Positions 1-4,843 of a stretch of DNA of 40,000 nucleotides are shown here, piece after piece. Origin of the DNA: Pelagibacteraceae bacterium AG-390-O04 (GTDB lineage Bacteria > Pseudomonadota > Alphaproteobacteria > Pelagibacterales > Pelagibacteraceae); the NCBI GenBank assembly GCA_003278065.1, contig QCHE01000006.1, forward strand, positions 1-40,000. Direction: 5' to 3'. The notes beneath the pieces are model-generated. The model saw nothing but the letters and a program-made list of their open reading frames with translations, was not told the origin of the DNA and ran no database searches. Position numbers and translations under genes: made by a program. The number at the start of each line of letters is the position of its first letter. Position 1 is the first letter of the stretch.

Positions 1-1062
1 GGCATTTTTCTAGTAATATTTTTATTATTAAAACAAAGAAGAAATAAGGATGATCAAAACAAGAGTAAAGAGGCTGAGGAAATAGCCAATTTAAAAACAG
101 AAATAGTCACATTAAAAGATACATTAAATAATACTATCAATACTTCACTTGGCACAATGTCGACTTCCTTTAACGCTCTTTCAACAGGAGTAACAAAGGA
201 TATGACAGAGGCTCTAACCAAAGTTGATGAGAAGGTTGGTAATTTTAACCAACAAGTACAATTATTAAATCAAAGCCAAGAGGGGATTACTAAAATTTTA
301 GCAGGGGTTAAAAAGTATGGAACACTTGCAGAGTATTCTTTAGATGCTTTAATAAAAGATTTATTACCCGCATCTCAATTCATGACAAATGTGAAGATGA
401 AAGAGGATACAAGCGAAAACGTAGAATTTGCGATTAAACTTCAAGGAGATGTTTTAGTTCCAGTAGACTCTCATTTTCCAGTAGAAAAATTTAAAGCAAT
501 CACAGATGCTTATGATGTAGATGATAAAAAAGCCGTTGCTGATGCTAGAACCAAATTAGCAAGTGCATTTAAGGCTAAAGCAAAAAGTGTTATGGAAAAA
601 TATATTGTTCCACCTAAGACAACTGATTTTGCAATAGTATATGCCCCAACTGAAAGCCTTTATAAAGAATTAACAGAATATCAAGATCCAAGCACTAAAG
701 AATTGTTAACCCAAGAATTAATGAAAAAATATAAAATAGTAATTTGTGGCCCTAATACTCTTTCAGCTTATTTACAGTCATTACATATGGGCTTTCAATC
801 ACTGAAAGTACAAAAAGGAGCTACAGAAATATACAATCATCTTAAAACAATCACCACAAGATTTGGAAAACATTTTGATAATATAATTACTCTTAGAAAA
901 AAATTAGAAGAAGCAATGAGCGTGGTAGACAAGTTTGGTACTGATGCAAGATCCAAAAGCAGAACGTTAGAAAATATAAAAGATCCCGAGCAGGTTGAGA
1001 AAGCTGTTCAAACAGAAAATGTAGAAAAATTTGTTGAAAGAAATAAACAGCTCAAAAATTAA
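1..1062 (+). CDS. rmuC: DNA recombination protein RmuC, 5' end missing
   Basis: The reading frame is open from base 1, so the gene begins before the window; an internal ATG at 157 is not the true start. The first visible residues (GIFLVIFLLLKQRR) look like the end of an N-terminal membrane anchor, followed by a charged coiled-coil stretch and then the conserved RmuC core (about residues 120-300 of the visible part), including the VDSHFP and YAPTES segments typical of the family. RmuC proteins are membrane-anchored, predicted nucleases that limit recombination at inverted repeats; the biochemical activity is not well established. The gene runs straight into a PD-(D/E)XK nuclease and an exonuclease I gene on the same strand, which suggests a DNA-processing operon. 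The family call rests on whole-protein resemblance and is fairly secure; the missing N-terminus cannot be judged. Confidence 0.87.
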   Translation, partial: GIFLVIFLLLKQRRNKDDQNKSKEAEEIANLKTEIVTLKDTLNNTINTSLGTMSTSFNALSTGVTKDMTEALTKVDEKVGNFNQQVQLLNQSQEGITKILAGVKKYGTLAEYSLDALIKDLLPASQFMTNVKMKEDTSENVEFAIKLQGDVLVPVDSHFPVEKFKAITDAYDVDDKKAVADARTKLASAFKAKAKSVMEKYIVPPKTTDFAIVYAPTESLYKELTEYQDPSTKELLTQELMKKYKIVICGPNTLSAYLQSLHMGFQSLKVQKGATEIYNHLKTITTRFGKHFDNIITLRKKLEEAMSVVDKFGTDARSKSRTLENIKDPEQVEKAVQTENVEKFVERNKQLKN

Positions 1063-1099
1063 TTTCTTTTTTCCAAAAATACCGATTATAAGAAATCAC

Positions 1100-1786
1100 A
1101 TGCAGTGGAATAAGAAATATAATTATCCAACATCATCAAGAGCAACAGAAGATGGAATTAGAAGATATTTATTAGGAGAGAAAAAATTACCTAGTGTTAC
1201 CTCTATTCTTGATGCCACAAAATCTGAGGAGGATAAAGCCGCATTAGCAAACTGGAAAGAAAGAACTGGACATAAAGAAGCTGAAGCGATTACAAAAGCT
1301 GCAAGTAGCAGAGGTTCACAGATGCACAACTATTTAGAGTCATTTTTGTTAGGAAGAGAAAATTTAAGTTTTTTTGATGATAAAGAACAATACAAGATGA
1401 TGGCTAAAGAAATAATTGAGAAAGGTTTAAAAAATAGACTAGAAGAAATATATGGGACTGAGTGCACGCTTTATTACCCAGAAAAGTATGCAGGTACCGC
1501 TGATTGTGTTGGGGTATATGAAGGCAAAGAAACAATAATTGATTTTAAACAATCCAACAAACCTAAAAAAGTTGAGTACATAGATTCTTGGCTGTTACAA
1601 ACTGCTGCTTATTCTTTAGCTCATAATGTTGTGTATAAATCAAATATCACCGCTTGTGTTATACTTGTTTGCACAGTAGATAATTTATTTCAAGAATTTA
1701 AAATTCAAGGCCCTGAGTTGATAACTTATCAAAATTTATTTTTGGGAAGATTAAAAAAATTTAATGAAATGAATAATTTATATTAA
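1100..1786 (+). CDS. Phage-like PD-(D/E)XK family exonuclease
   Basis: A 228-residue protein counted from the ATG at 1100. An in-frame ATG at 1031 would overlap rmuC by 32 bases and add 23 residues without family character, so I prefer 1100. RecB-type nuclease motifs appear in order: RGSQMH with His76 and Glu80, Asp135 in GTADCVG, the core Asp148-Phe-Lys150 (IIDFKQSNKPK) and a QTAAYS motif (Gln167, Tyr171). This pattern is what I know from exonucleases of marine tailed phages (cyanophages, pelagiphages) and related bacterial proteins. It probably degrades DNA ends with a metal-dependent mechanism; polarity and substrate cannot be read from sequence. It starts 37 bases after rmuC and ends 5 bases before the exonuclease I gene, so co-transcription is likely. 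A phage origin is possible, but base composition does not visibly differ from its neighbours. Confidence 0.8.
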   Translation: MQWNKKYNYPTSSRATEDGIRRYLLGEKKLPSVTSILDATKSEEDKAALANWKERTGHKEAEAITKAASSRGSQMHNYLESFLLGRENLSFFDDKEQYKMMAKEIIEKGLKNRLEEIYGTECTLYYPEKYAGTADCVGVYEGKETIIDFKQSNKPKKVEYIDSWLLQTAAYSLAHNVVYKSNITACVILVCTVDNLFQEFKIQGPELITYQNLFLGRLKKFNEMNNLY

Positions 1787-1791
1787 TAAAA

Positions 1792-3228
1792 ATGGATAAA
1801 ATTGTAATTTACGATACTGAAACAACTAATAGTACTATTTGGGGATCTATAATTGAAGTTGGGGCAGTTGTTGTTGATAAAAATCTTAAAGAGATAGGAA
1901 AATTAAATATCAGGGGCCGAATGCCAGAGGGTGAGGTGCCAAGTGCAAAAGCCCTACTAGTAAATTCAACTAGTATTGATTTACTTACAAAGGGTAATTA
2001 TTCTCATTATGATTTTTTAGGAGCTGTTGAGAACTTTTTCTCAAAATGTGCACCAGCAATGTTTATGGGTTGGTCAAACTTAAATTTTGATCGAAGAATG
2101 TTTCATTTTAATTTTTTTAAAGGAAATCGATATCCATATGCTACTCATTCATCACCTAACCAAGAACATGATGGCCTTCATATTGCAAGAGCAGCTCAAA
2201 CATTAAACCCTGAAACTTTGAAAACAGAATTAACAGAAGCAGGTAACCCAAGTCTTGCATTAGAGTCATTATCTAGAATGCAGGGTTTTGACACCTCAGC
2301 TAGTCATACAGCTTATGTTGATGCTTTAAATTCATTACGAGTTCTTAGAATTATAAAAGACAAACACAAAGAAAATTGGGAAAGATTTTTGAAAACATCA
2401 ACAAAATCGAGCGTTGAAACACTTTTAACTAATGAAGGTATTTATTCTATATTTGAAAATGTGAAGGGAAGAAATATGATGTACTTAGTCTCTACTTTAC
2501 ACCCAAAACACACTTTTCACCCCTCATATGTTTCATGGGGGTATCTTTGGGATTTAAGAAGGGATCCAGAACCCTTATTAAATTTATCAGTCAATCAATT
2601 AAGAGATACATTAAAAAAAATCAGCCCAAAAGCGTTAAGAGTTTTAAAAACAAATAAAGCACCAGTGGTTTTGGATAAAGAGTTTGCTTTGAAACAAAAA
2701 CCCTATTCAGATTTAGATTTAGAGACAATTAAAAAGAGAGCACATTTAGTGAGAAATAGTGAAAATTTTTGCAAGAATATTCAAATTATAAATAGGGAAG
2801 CTGCAGAGGAAAAAGAGCAAACTAAAACCCAAGAGGATTTATTACCTGAGGAAACCCTATATGAAAAATTTATTCCAAACAAAGATACAGCTCTATTTAA
2901 AACTTGGCATAGCTCATCGTGGGAAGACAAATTAAGATTATTAGACAAATTTCAAGATAAAAGATGTAGCTGGTTTGGACAAAAAATTATTTATCAAGAA
3001 GCTCCGCAAATTTTACCTCCTGATTTATATAAAAATATAAAGAGTGAAATAGCTAGACGGATTTTAAGTAAAAATAAAGAAAAATGGCAAACAGTAAATA
3101 TGGCTTATACTGAAATTGATTATTTAAGAGATCAAGCTTCAAATAAAGATGACGAAGAAGAATTGAAAAAATTAGATGAAATAAATCAATTTATTATGTC
3201 AATTGAAAAAAAATATGAAATTGCATAG
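1792..3228 (+). CDS. sbcB: Exodeoxyribonuclease I (SbcB-like, DEDDh exonuclease)
   Basis: The 478-residue length matches the exonuclease I family (about 475). The N-terminal DEDDh fold is visible: Asp8 and Glu10 in IVIYDTETT, Asp100 in GWSNLNFD, and His172/Asp177 in SHTAYVDALN. The C-terminal half follows the SH3-like and helical parts of SbcB (LHPKHTFHPSYVSWGYLWDLRRDP). Family members digest single-stranded DNA 3' to 5' and act in mismatch repair and recombination. The start lies 5 bases after the PD-(D/E)XK stop, implying tight coupling. The second motif reads NFDRRMF rather than the more usual RFDDE, so it is a divergent member, but all four acidic residues and the His are present. Confidence 0.85.
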   Translation: MDKIVIYDTETTNSTIWGSIIEVGAVVVDKNLKEIGKLNIRGRMPEGEVPSAKALLVNSTSIDLLTKGNYSHYDFLGAVENFFSKCAPAMFMGWSNLNFDRRMFHFNFFKGNRYPYATHSSPNQEHDGLHIARAAQTLNPETLKTELTEAGNPSLALESLSRMQGFDTSASHTAYVDALNSLRVLRIIKDKHKENWERFLKTSTKSSVETLLTNEGIYSIFENVKGRNMMYLVSTLHPKHTFHPSYVSWGYLWDLRRDPEPLLNLSVNQLRDTLKKISPKALRVLKTNKAPVVLDKEFALKQKPYSDLDLETIKKRAHLVRNSENFCKNIQIINREAAEEKEQTKTQEDLLPEETLYEKFIPNKDTALFKTWHSSSWEDKLRLLDKFQDKRCSWFGQKIIYQEAPQILPPDLYKNIKSEIARRILSKNKEKWQTVNMAYTEIDYLRDQASNKDDEEELKKLDEINQFIMSIEKKYEIA

Positions 3229-3262: not shown

Positions 3263-3580
3263 ATGCTAATAAATTTTAAAGATGAAGATTTTGAAAATAA
3301 AATAAAAAACGAAGATGTGAGCGTTTTACAATTTTCAGCTGCTTGGTGCAAACCTTGCCAAGTTATGCGACCTCTTCTTGAAAAATTAAGTGAAGAATAT
3401 AAAGATAAAGCTAATTTTTATTATGCAGATATAGAAGATGGTGGAATTAATTTGGGTTCTCAAGCTGGTGTTCGAGGAGTTCCAACTTTTGTAATTTATA
3501 AAAAGGGTGTTGAAGTAGATAGAAAAGTTGGCGGAGTTCCTGAAAGTCACTTAAAAGAATTTTTAGAAAAAAATATCTAA
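3263..3580 (+). CDS. trxA: Thioredoxin
   Basis: A 105-residue single-domain protein with the full thioredoxin signature: FSAAWCKPCQVMRPLL, redox pair Cys29-Lys-Pro-Cys32, and the cis-proline loop GVRGVPTFVIYKKG. It reduces protein disulfides as electron donor for enzymes such as ribonucleotide reductase. The active site reads WCKPC instead of the commonest WCGPC, which may shift its redox potential. No signal peptide is visible, so it is cytoplasmic. The last 4 bases overlap the convergent folC end. The symbol is given by family; the genome may hold other thioredoxins. Confidence 0.85.
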   Translation: MLINFKDEDFENKIKNEDVSVLQFSAAWCKPCQVMRPLLEKLSEEYKDKANFYYADIEDGGINLGSQAGVRGVPTFVIYKKGVEVDRKVGGVPESHLKEFLEKNI

Positions 3581-4843
3581 TTTAAATTTAACATTTCACC
3601 AGCTAAATATAAAGATCCAGTTATAATCACTAAATCGTTTTCTTCTAATGGTATAGATTCAATTGCTTGTTTAATACTTTTTTTATATTCAACTTTTGGG
3701 ATACTTTTGAATTTTTCTTTTAAATCTTTTCCACTTAGAGAATTTGGTTGCCCAGGAATATCTATAGTAGTTAAGGAAGATATATCTTTAAAATAACTTA
3801 TATATTTTTCATGATCTTTGTTTGCCATCATTCCTATAACAACATGCTTTTTACAATCAAGAGTTTGAAGGTATTCATTCAAAACTCTTGAACCGTCCTC
3901 ATTATGACTTCCATCTAATAATAATCGATTATTTTTAACTAAGTTTTTAAGTTTTCCGGATTTTATTTCTTGCAATCTAGCAATACTTTTAATTTTCATT
4001 ATTCCATTTTTAATGTTTTCTTCATTAATATTTATATTTAATAATCTTAAAGTTGCTAATGCTGTTGAAATATTTTCTAGTTGAAACCGTCCTAAAATTT
4101 TTTGGTAATGGGAGCTTTAAACCACCAAATTTATCCTCATAATAGAAAAAGGCGTTTTCATTACTAGAGAAACAATAGTCATCATTAAAAAATAATTTTT
4201 TAGATTTATTTTTAGAAATTGTTTTTTTTATGCACTCAGTTGTTTCATTTGAATTTTGTTTAGAAACTATGATATTCGATTTTAAAAGAGATGAAGTTTT
4301 TTCAAATACAATTTTCTTAATTGTTTGTTGGTCTTTTGGTAACCAGTCAAAATGGTCTCTACTTATTGAACATACAACACTAGCTAAATTTTTTTTTAAG
4401 ATATTAGTTGCATCAAATCTATGAAATAAACCTGACTCAATCAAATTTATATTATCAGGGTATTGTGCTGCTTTATGAAAATAACATGCTGTTAATATTT
4501 CAAAAAAAGTAATAGGCTGGCTGTCATTAACTGTTTCAACTTCTTCAAAAAGATCAGCTAACTCATTATCCTCTAACTCTTTATTATTAAAAATAAATCT
4601 TTCATTTATTTTTTGGATATGTGGACTTGTATAAACATTAGATTGAATATTTGCTTCTTTTAAAATTGAATAAATCGCATTTATTGTAGAGTACTTACCG
4701 TTAGTACCAACCACCGATATTGCTTTAATTTTGTTTTGTGGGTTACCAAGTTTTTTACAAAGATCAGTAATTCTATTTAAACTAAGATCAATCTTTTTAG
4801 GATGCAGCTTTTGTAAGCGATTGATTATTTTCTGAAGTTTCAT
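3577..4843 (-). CDS. folC: Dihydrofolate/folylpolyglutamate synthase FolC, interrupted by a one-base frameshift
   Basis: FolC adds L-glutamate to dihydropteroate and to folates. The gene reads from 4843 to a stop in the wrong frame at 4025, while the rest of the protein continues in another frame to 3577. Removing one base from the T6 run at 4098-4103 (A6 on the coding strand) joins both parts into a 421-residue protein of normal length, with the junction reading LPLPKILGRFQLENIS. Visible motifs are the P-loop GTNGKYST (residues 46-53; usually GTNGKGS), FDATN, a DHFDWL segment and the C-terminal DGSHNEDG. Its start overlaps accD by 47 bases, at the end of the trp-accD block. It may be a sequencing error, a true pseudogene or a slippage-rescued gene; error is likeliest given two similar cases in the window. 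Confidence 0.8.

What the first reader, a model, noticed from the sequence alone, without database searches (positions are those of the whole stretch)
1..3228. Three-nuclease cluster: RmuC, phage-like PD-(D/E)XK exonuclease, exonuclease I
Three DNA end-processing proteins follow each other on one strand with gaps of 37 and 5 bases, in a genome otherwise stripped of extras. The middle gene resembles exonucleases of marine phages. The set could be a recombination or DNA uptake/degradation module, or an anti-phage nuclease set assembled from a captured phage gene.
Basis: inference. Interest (0 to 1): 0.5.

Follow-up and report, generated by a model that had tools for sequence, protein, structure and literature searches.

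The report
Captured phage exonuclease in SAR11 cluster
In the ocean bacterium SAR11, an old pair of DNA-handling genes has gained a DNA-end-chewing enzyme related to those of marine viruses, and this trio sits at a spot where other virus-defence genes keep landing, so it may help destroy viral or broken DNA.

Summary
In detail: rmuC (5'-cut by the contig start), a 228-aa PD-(D/E)XK exonuclease and exonuclease I lie on one strand with gaps of 37 and 5 bases. The linkage is real. Of 75 other Pelagibacteraceae genomes with the middle gene, 69 have both partners within 5 kb, 5 have one of them, and the exception is a phage-like contig. An ExoI–RmuC–thioredoxin cluster also occurs in the sister family without the middle gene, so the trio is an old pair plus one capture. 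The middle protein is MGME1-like in fold and active site; its chromosomal copies form one clade beside marine-viral homologues. Gene order is shuffled yet linkage persists. The hisG–thioredoxin site behaves as a defence hotspot: C5-methyltransferases lie within 5 kb of rmuC in 6 of 33 genomes (0.3 expected), and inserts carry DISARM, Pbe, R-M and ATPase genes. Unexpectedly, the window's RmuC lacks the canonical catalytic residues (VE..DSH, not PD..DSK) yet is under purifying selection; divergent RmuC alleles with the lysine replace it in other strains. Best reading: a DNA-end/ssDNA degradation module, probably housekeeping that may also limit phage DNA. An anti-phage role is circumstantial; a DNA-uptake role has no support.

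The parts
1..1062 (+). rmuC, 5'-truncated by the contig start (353 aa open); variant active site VE..DSH instead of PD..D(S/A)K; end of an N-terminal hydrophobic segment still visible
   Evidence: PF02646 3.9e-48; motif alignment; N-terminal hydrophobic segment in 16 of 16 full-length relatives printed
1100..1786 (+). MGME1-like PD-(D/E)XK exonuclease (228 aa) of phage family phrog_298; active-site residues H76, E121, D135, D148, K150
   Evidence: phrog_298 2.3e-45; human MGME1 by sequence 1.2e-11 and by fold TM 0.74; invariant residues
1792..3228 (+). exonuclease I (SbcB-like, 478 aa); candidate DEDDh residues D8/E10, D100, H172, D177
   Evidence: PF08411 1.4e-14; PADLOC RTasSbcB 1e-55; ExoI chains in the PDB; motif positions, their roles recalled
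3263..3580 (+). thioredoxin gene, right-hand anchor of the site, also near rmuC/sbcB in the sister family; not claimed as a working part
   Evidence: PF00085 8.2e-22; position in relatives

Best explanation
It is a co-directional DNA-end degradation module. Its old core is exonuclease I next to a membrane-anchored RmuC, as in the sister family. In the Pelagibacter lineage an MGME1-like exonuclease from the marine-phage pool was added. Inferred mechanism: RmuC holds or senses DNA at the membrane but in this lineage probably does not cut by the usual chemistry. The captured enzyme trims 5' and 3' single-stranded tails and DNA ends, as human MGME1 does. ExoI removes 3' single strands. Together they would clear linear or single-stranded DNA (broken forks, phage intermediates) in cells where no AddA was found. 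Shown: linkage, phage-family relationship and one chromosomal clade, fold, intact exonuclease residues, altered RmuC motif, defence-gene hotspot. Inferred: activities, substrates, cooperation and any benefit against phages.
For: Linkage: of 75 genomes with the middle gene (own excluded), 69 have rmuC and sbcB within 5 kb, 2 a DUF2130-related ORF plus sbcB, 2 rmuC only, 1 sbcB only at a contig end, 1 neither (phage-like contig) (its 76 loci hold G180 twice). Orders differ (rmuC-mid-sbcB, mid-rmuC-sbcB, mid-sbcB-rmuC) yet proximity is kept. Old core: in the 30 loci fetched from the order search (29 sister family, 1 own family) sbcB lies by rmuC in 29 and mid in 0. Capture: 28 chromosomal SAR11 sequences form one clade (94/93) next to IMG/VR and pelagiphage sequences; of 289 genomes drawn from the class only 2 Pelagibacter genomes, the own one included, match well, plus one weak partial hit; 35 of 35 viral loci carry mid without rmuC, sbcB or trx in the flanks read. 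Fold and residues. AddA: 0 of 61 genomes over the curated cut-off. Purifying selection: dN/dS 0.05-0.15 (rmuC, 11 loci), 0.025-0.09 (mid) and 0.02-0.07 (sbcB) for the nine nearest loci. Hotspot.
Against: No activity was measured. Linkage does not prove a shared pathway. By subtraction at least 25 of 102 near-complete genomes keep both RmuC and ExoI without the middle gene (70 have it, 97 and 100 have the others), so it is dispensable. RecB and RecC were not searched for separately, and the AddA model is narrow: it passes its cut-off in only 1 of 14 control genomes. The hotspot could be a permissive place unrelated to the module's job. For the two more distant loci compared, dN/dS is higher (mid 0.12-0.21, sbcB 0.26) and dS is near saturation.
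Confidence: 0.58

Rival explanations
1. A dedicated anti-phage system: membrane-bound RmuC meets incoming DNA, the captured phage-type exonuclease and ExoI degrade it. It works like Shield but as a compact three-gene set.
For: C5-methyltransferase within 5 kb of rmuC in 6 of 33 genomes, 0.30 expected, P 5e-7 uncorrected for relatedness. Both DrmB genes found in 247 genomes lie within about 2.1 kb of mid or rmuC. Inserts with DrmA, DrmB, methyl-directed REase, Pbe, R-M and ATPase genes. In G202, G109 and G078 the hisG-trx interval is an island: about 33 kb, about 23 kb, and at least 33 kb with hisG out of view. RmuC is replaced by an allele without blastp similarity in 8 of 103 loci whose middle protein is at least 85% identical. 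Shield's ShdA is a membrane RmuC protein that degrades DNA and protects from phages (PMC10270631).
Against: RmuC and ExoI are present in 97 and 100 of 102 near-complete genomes and the cluster is shared with the sister family, unlike patchy defence systems. The commonest state is a bare trio with no other defence gene (98 of 119 informative loci). The window's RmuC gave no PADLOC family and lacks the catalytic lysine. No phage test exists.
Confidence: 0.3
2. Pure housekeeping: replication-fork and recombination end processing in a lineage without AddAB; the defence genes nearby are accidental neighbours.
For: Near-universal ExoI and RmuC, shared cluster in the sister family, purifying selection, no AddA over cut-off in 61 genomes, MGME1 precedent in mitochondrial DNA maintenance (PMC6237815).
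Against: Repeated swap of RmuC alleles and the enrichment of defence genes at this one place are not expected of plain housekeeping genes.
Confidence: 0.3
3. A DNA-uptake or DNA-as-nutrient degradation set.
For: Only the kinds of enzymes: single-strand exonucleases and a membrane-anchored DNA protein.
Against: No competence family came up among the neighbouring proteins that were scanned; competence genes were not searched for as such.
Confidence: 0.05
4. The middle gene is a neutral passenger from a prophage.
For: Phage family.
Against: One clade across divergent genomes, dN/dS 0.025-0.09 against the nine nearest loci compared, intact catalytic residues, no other phage genes in the module.
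Confidence: 0.03

Closest known systems
MGME1 (mitochondrial genome maintenance exonuclease 1), PD-(D/E)XK
   Same: Fold (TM 0.74, best PDB match), sequence (1.2e-11), His/Glu/Asp/Asp/Lys active site
   Different: Bacterial chromosome, clustered with rmuC and sbcB, about 25% identical; activity untested
phrog_298 phage exonucleases (Pelagibacter phages HTVC023P and HTVC027P, jumbo phages, IMG/VR contigs)
   Same: Family, length, invariant residues; 882 phage records match by tblastn, 379 of them over at least 80% of the query
   Different: At most 49% identical in the collections searched; the phage copies read here stand without rmuC or sbcB nearby (35 of 35 loci)
Shield anti-phage system (ShdA, RmuC domain, Pseudomonas)
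   Same: Membrane-anchored RmuC-domain protein near defence genes
   Different: Here RmuC has a degenerate active site, is near-universal, and is paired with two exonucleases; ShdB-E were not searched for
Exonuclease I (SbcB)
   Same: PF08411 over cut-off, DEDDh-type motifs by eye
   Different: 109.6 bits against the NCBIfam equivalog cut-off of 260; best PADLOC model is an RT-associated SbcB
AddAB/RecBCD
   Same: PD-(D/E)XK end-processing logic
   Different: No helicase in the trio; no AddA over cut-off in 61 genomes

Membership tests
MGME1-like / phrog_298 exonuclease | Membership in the sequence family | tested here: met
   phrog_298 2.3e-45; MGME1 chains 1.2e-11
MGME1-like / phrog_298 exonuclease | Catalytic His, Glu, Asp, Asp, Lys | tested here: met
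   H76, E121, D135, D148, K150 invariant in 16 and in 20 aligned sequences; MGME1 residues from passages of PMC6237815
MGME1-like / phrog_298 exonuclease | MGME1 fold | tested here: met
   Model pLDDT 91.5; nine MGME1 chains rank first, TM 0.69-0.74
MGME1-like / phrog_298 exonuclease | Bidirectional single-strand exonuclease activity | not testable with these tools
   Needs purified protein
RmuC (PF02646) | Curated family score | tested here: met
   164.5 bits, cut-off 26
RmuC (PF02646) | PD-(D/E)XK residues PD..D(S/A)K | tested here: not met
   VE..DSH in the window and in 132 of 161 RmuC examined (loci, some genomes twice); 29 of 161, E. coli and 30 of 30 loci of the order search have the lysine
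RmuC (PF02646) | N-terminal membrane helix | tested here: inconclusive
   Start cut off in the window; 16 of 16 relatives printed have a hydrophobic N-terminal segment
Exonuclease I | ExoI C-terminal domain PF08411 | tested here: met
   54.3 bits, cut-off 27
Exonuclease I | RNase_T exonuclease domain PF00929 over its cut-off | tested here: not met
   19.9 bits against 24, E 0.0011; matched over the whole domain but below the curated score
Exonuclease I | NCBIfam equivalog PRK11779 cut-off | tested here: not met
   109.6 bits against 260: ExoI family, not shown to be the equivalog
Shield anti-phage system | ShdA with active RmuC domain, plus ShdB-E in some subtypes | tested here: inconclusive
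   No PADLOC match for the window RmuC at E 0.1; whether that library holds Shield models was not checked; ShdB-E not searched
Shield anti-phage system | Protection against phages | not testable with these tools
   Needs phage assays
DISARM | DrmA and DrmB present | tested here: not met
   DrmB absent from the window's genome (one DrmB model); DrmA and DrmB beside the cluster in G202, DrmB in G009

The most novel reading that the evidence does not exclude
SAR11 carries a previously undescribed anti-phage module in which a nuclease-dead, membrane-anchored RmuC acts as DNA sensor or scaffold and works with an exonuclease captured from the phages' own replication toolkit. The hisG-thioredoxin site would then be a main defence hotspot of the ocean's commonest bacteria, and RmuC alleles there would be exchanged under phage pressure.
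Probability: 0.25. Interest if true: 0.8.

Novelty: new variant of a known kind. Interest (0 to 1): 0.58.

Why it matters
SAR11 is thought to have few defences although its phages are abundant (recalled). A fixed site where RmuC alleles and defence genes turn over gives a concrete place to look for its immunity. The case also shows a phage-type exonuclease domesticated next to old host partners, with the fold of human mitochondrial MGME1. An RmuC that lost its catalytic residues but stays conserved makes a testable question of what RmuC does apart from cutting DNA.

Tried and rejected
Prophage remnant: rejected, no phage genes in the module and purifying selection. DISARM membership: rejected for the window. 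AddAB in the genome: 49 of 61 genomes gave only matches below the cut-off, those listed lying in frames of up to about 755 aa, which I read as UvrD-type helicases by length; RecB and RecC were not searched separately. RmuC as a canonical nuclease: rejected for this lineage on motif grounds; a shifted lysine could still rescue activity, which was not modelled. A PDB sequence match for RmuC: none useful. A reverse-transcriptase partner, suggested by the RTasSbcB model: the only RT-linked model among the flanking proteins scanned was RTasNERD-Hel for a helicase-like protein in L167; no RT itself was reported, but not every flanking gene was scanned. I had first doubted that L147, L151 and L152 lie at the same site, since neither anchor was in the stretch read; wider stretches show trx in all three and hisG in two.

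Papers: RmuC with SAR11 gave 1 paper, one mention of each word (listing only); MGME1 with SAR11 gave 0; SAR11 with DISARM and 'defense system' gave 1 (listing only); SAR11 with restriction-modification and phage defense gave 10, none opened. Searches returned 607 and 606 papers dominated by SAR11 plus Pelagibacter and say nothing either way. PMC12753301 (passages) reports SOS induction by phage HTVC027P but no passage shown concerns these genes. PMC2217521 (passages) describes four hypervariable SAR11 regions; I did not establish whether this site is one of them.

Limits of the counts: the methyltransferase test used one match per genome; 38 genomes with a substantial C5 match were given to, 5 without an RmuC match were dropped, weak partial matches and second or tandem copies were dropped, and relatedness is not corrected. 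Inserts: 19 of 119 informative loci (10 of 75 and, without the phage-like contig L153, 9 of 44) have an extra ORF of at least 140 aa upstream of the middle gene; 16 of these 19 carry a gene of a blastp cluster whose representative matched a PADLOC family, so not every member was scanned. L067 and L100 were not scanned against PADLOC, and L149 gave only weak TPR/PrimPol matches that I did not count. Several other insert proteins scanned had no PADLOC match (7 of 10). Control: 1 of 10 random window proteins (the SecA-like one) matched weakly, 9e-6.
Full report
What is there. Three genes follow each other on the + strand: rmuC (1-1062, its start cut off by the contig end), a 228-aa PD-(D/E)XK protein (1100-1786) and exonuclease I (1792-3228), with gaps of 37 and 5 bases. 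The window is the first 40 kb of contig C6 of a 1.06-Mb genome. Its closest named relatives are Pelagibacteraceae single-cell genomes, so SAR11 is right. The upstream question cannot be answered in this genome; in relatives hisS-hisZ-hisG precedes the cluster and trx-folC-accD follows (the his, folC and accD names are my reading of the proteins, not a database result).

Linkage. In 247 family genomes (own included) the middle gene is found in 76, RmuC in 202 and ExoI in 215; among 102 near-complete ones 70, 97 and 100. Of the 75 other genomes with the middle gene, 69 have both partners within 5 kb, 2 have a DUF2130-related ORF plus sbcB, 2 have rmuC only, 1 has sbcB only at a contig end, and 1 has neither and looks like a phage contig (PF09903 shown for L116 only). 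Order varies: rmuC-mid-sbcB is commonest, with mid-rmuC-sbcB (L138, L147, L151, L158) and mid-sbcB-rmuC (L144, L152) also seen. Staying together while the order changes argues for a functional tie.

Origin. RmuC and ExoI are the old part. The order search found RmuC in 74 of 78 genomes; of the 30 loci fetched (29 of the sister family and G004 of the own family), ExoI lies beside rmuC in 29, a thioredoxin match in 29, and the middle gene in none. The middle protein hits 882 phage records, best the Pelagibacter phages HTVC023P and HTVC027P and one relative at 42-44%, and 26 IMG/VR loci at up to 49%. In a maximum-likelihood tree of 47 sequences, 28 chromosomal SAR11 sequences form one group (94/93, just under the tool's 95 mark) next to these viral ones; the 29th, from G119, falls inside a viral group. 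Among 289 genomes drawn from the class, only two Pelagibacter genomes (the own one included) matched well, plus one weak partial hit. None of 35 viral loci carries rmuC, sbcB or trx in the flanks read, which are short for some. One capture into an existing host pair is the simplest reading; the tree has no independent root, so the direction rests on the wide phage distribution and the near absence elsewhere in the class.

What the middle protein is. By sequence its only PDB relatives at E up to 1 are human MGME1 chains. The model (pLDDT 91.5) matches MGME1 first (TM 0.74); RecE and Cas4-type nucleases follow. The residues that bind metal and catalyse in MGME1 (His180, Glu223, Asp238, Asp251, Lys253; passages of PMC6237815) correspond to H76, E121, D135, D148 and K150, invariant across the phage and host sequences aligned. 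MGME1 degrades single-stranded DNA from both ends (abstract of PMC11551736 in the listing) and cleaves flaps. That is the expected activity here, by inference.

The surprise in RmuC. The published RmuC active site is a PD-(D/E)XK motif (PMC1189080, passages). The window has VE..DSH. So do 132 of the 161 RmuC examined; 29 of 161, E. coli and 30 of 30 loci of the order search keep the lysine (some genomes are counted twice). The VE..DSH type is one clade on a long branch (100/100, length 2.23; the tool warns that long branches meet there, so its deeper position is unsure). It is under purifying selection (dN/dS 0.05-0.15 over 11 loci). It occurs in genomes without the middle gene too (L162, L169, L170), so the loss probably came first and the middle gene is not simply its replacement. 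Several deeply divergent RmuC types occur in the one genus. In 8 of 103 loci whose middle protein is at least 85% identical to the window's and whose rmuC is in view, RmuC has no blastp similarity to the window's, and in 8 of 105 ExoI is under 80% identical.

A defence hotspot. C5-methyltransferases lie within 5 kb of rmuC in 6 of 33 genomes where 0.30 are expected (P 5e-7, uncorrected for relatedness) and within 15 kb in 8 of 33 (0.90 expected). DrmB occurs in 2 of 247 genomes, both times within about 2.1 kb of mid or rmuC (G009 has no middle gene). In 19 of 119 informative loci an extra ORF lies upstream of the middle gene, and in 16 of these 19 it belongs to a cluster with a PADLOC match: DrmA/DrmB/methyl-directed endonuclease (L152), PbeA/PbeC (L151), C5-methyltransferases (L058, L107, L144, L147), a large AAA ATPase (six loci) and a GHKL-type ATPase like MzaB (four loci). 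The ATPase matches are weak to moderate and belong to broad families. One of ten random window proteins gave a weak match. The three richest loci do lie at the hisG-trx site: hisG to trx spans about 23 kb in G109 and about 33 kb in G202, and in G078 trx is on one side with hisG beyond the 33 kb read on the other. In 98 of 119 loci, the window's kind, the trio stands there with no such insert.

How it may work. Best supported is a DNA-end and single-strand degradation module, possibly filling part of the gap left by AddA, which none of 61 genomes shows over cut-off. Whether its gain is repair, phage restriction or both is open. For defence: the hotspot, allele swapping and the Shield precedent, where a membrane-bound RmuC protein degrades DNA and protects Pseudomonas (PMC10270631: abstract, discussion section and passages). 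Against: a near-universal, old core; a degenerate RmuC site; no activity data. ExoI is also known to modulate a reverse-transcriptase defence by degrading its product (PMC12483538, passages), a reminder that host exonucleases can be defence partners.

Novelty. Every part is a known family; the combination, the capture and the altered RmuC were not found described in the held library by the word searches, and that library lacks most subscription papers. I file it as a new variant of a known kind.

Noticed in passing
window 3577-4843, - strand: folC is split into two frames (272 and 140 aa) that together match the single 423-aa gene of L032; a frameshift, possibly a single-cell assembly error.
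   Followed up: partly
L159, L160 (G074, G176), with related sets in L154-L157: Larger rmuC loci: a small protein, a 530-aa protein without Pfam match, RmuC with the lysine, a 190-aa protein, a protein of about 1,120 aa with RNase H-like and AAA helicase domains and a Cas4-like stretch, and a divergent ExoI next to a Peptidase_S24 repressor-like gene. Possibly an inducible nuclease system.
   Followed up: partly
L116:4075-5274 and L149:2074-2532: A DUF2130 gene (L116; a shorter related ORF in L149) stands in the cluster where rmuC is missing.
   Followed up: partly
L153 (G119): A contig binned in a Pelagibacteraceae genome that carries the middle gene among many small ORFs; its copy groups with viral sequences, so it is probably phage.
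   Followed up: no
L147:8421-11501 and L151:949-3033: A protein of at least 1,027 aa (L147 scanned) with no Pfam or PADLOC match, near sbcB in two loci with defence genes.
   Followed up: no
L058, L107, L144: A restriction-modification-like insert between hisG and the cluster: an EVE-domain protein (scanned in L107), a C5-methyltransferase, and a partner that differs from locus to locus.
   Followed up: partly
G109:C4:88515-111949, G202:C9:3-34226, G078:C1 from 1087951: The hisG-trx interval is expanded to islands of about 23, about 33 and at least 33 kb, most of whose genes were not annotated here.
   Followed up: partly
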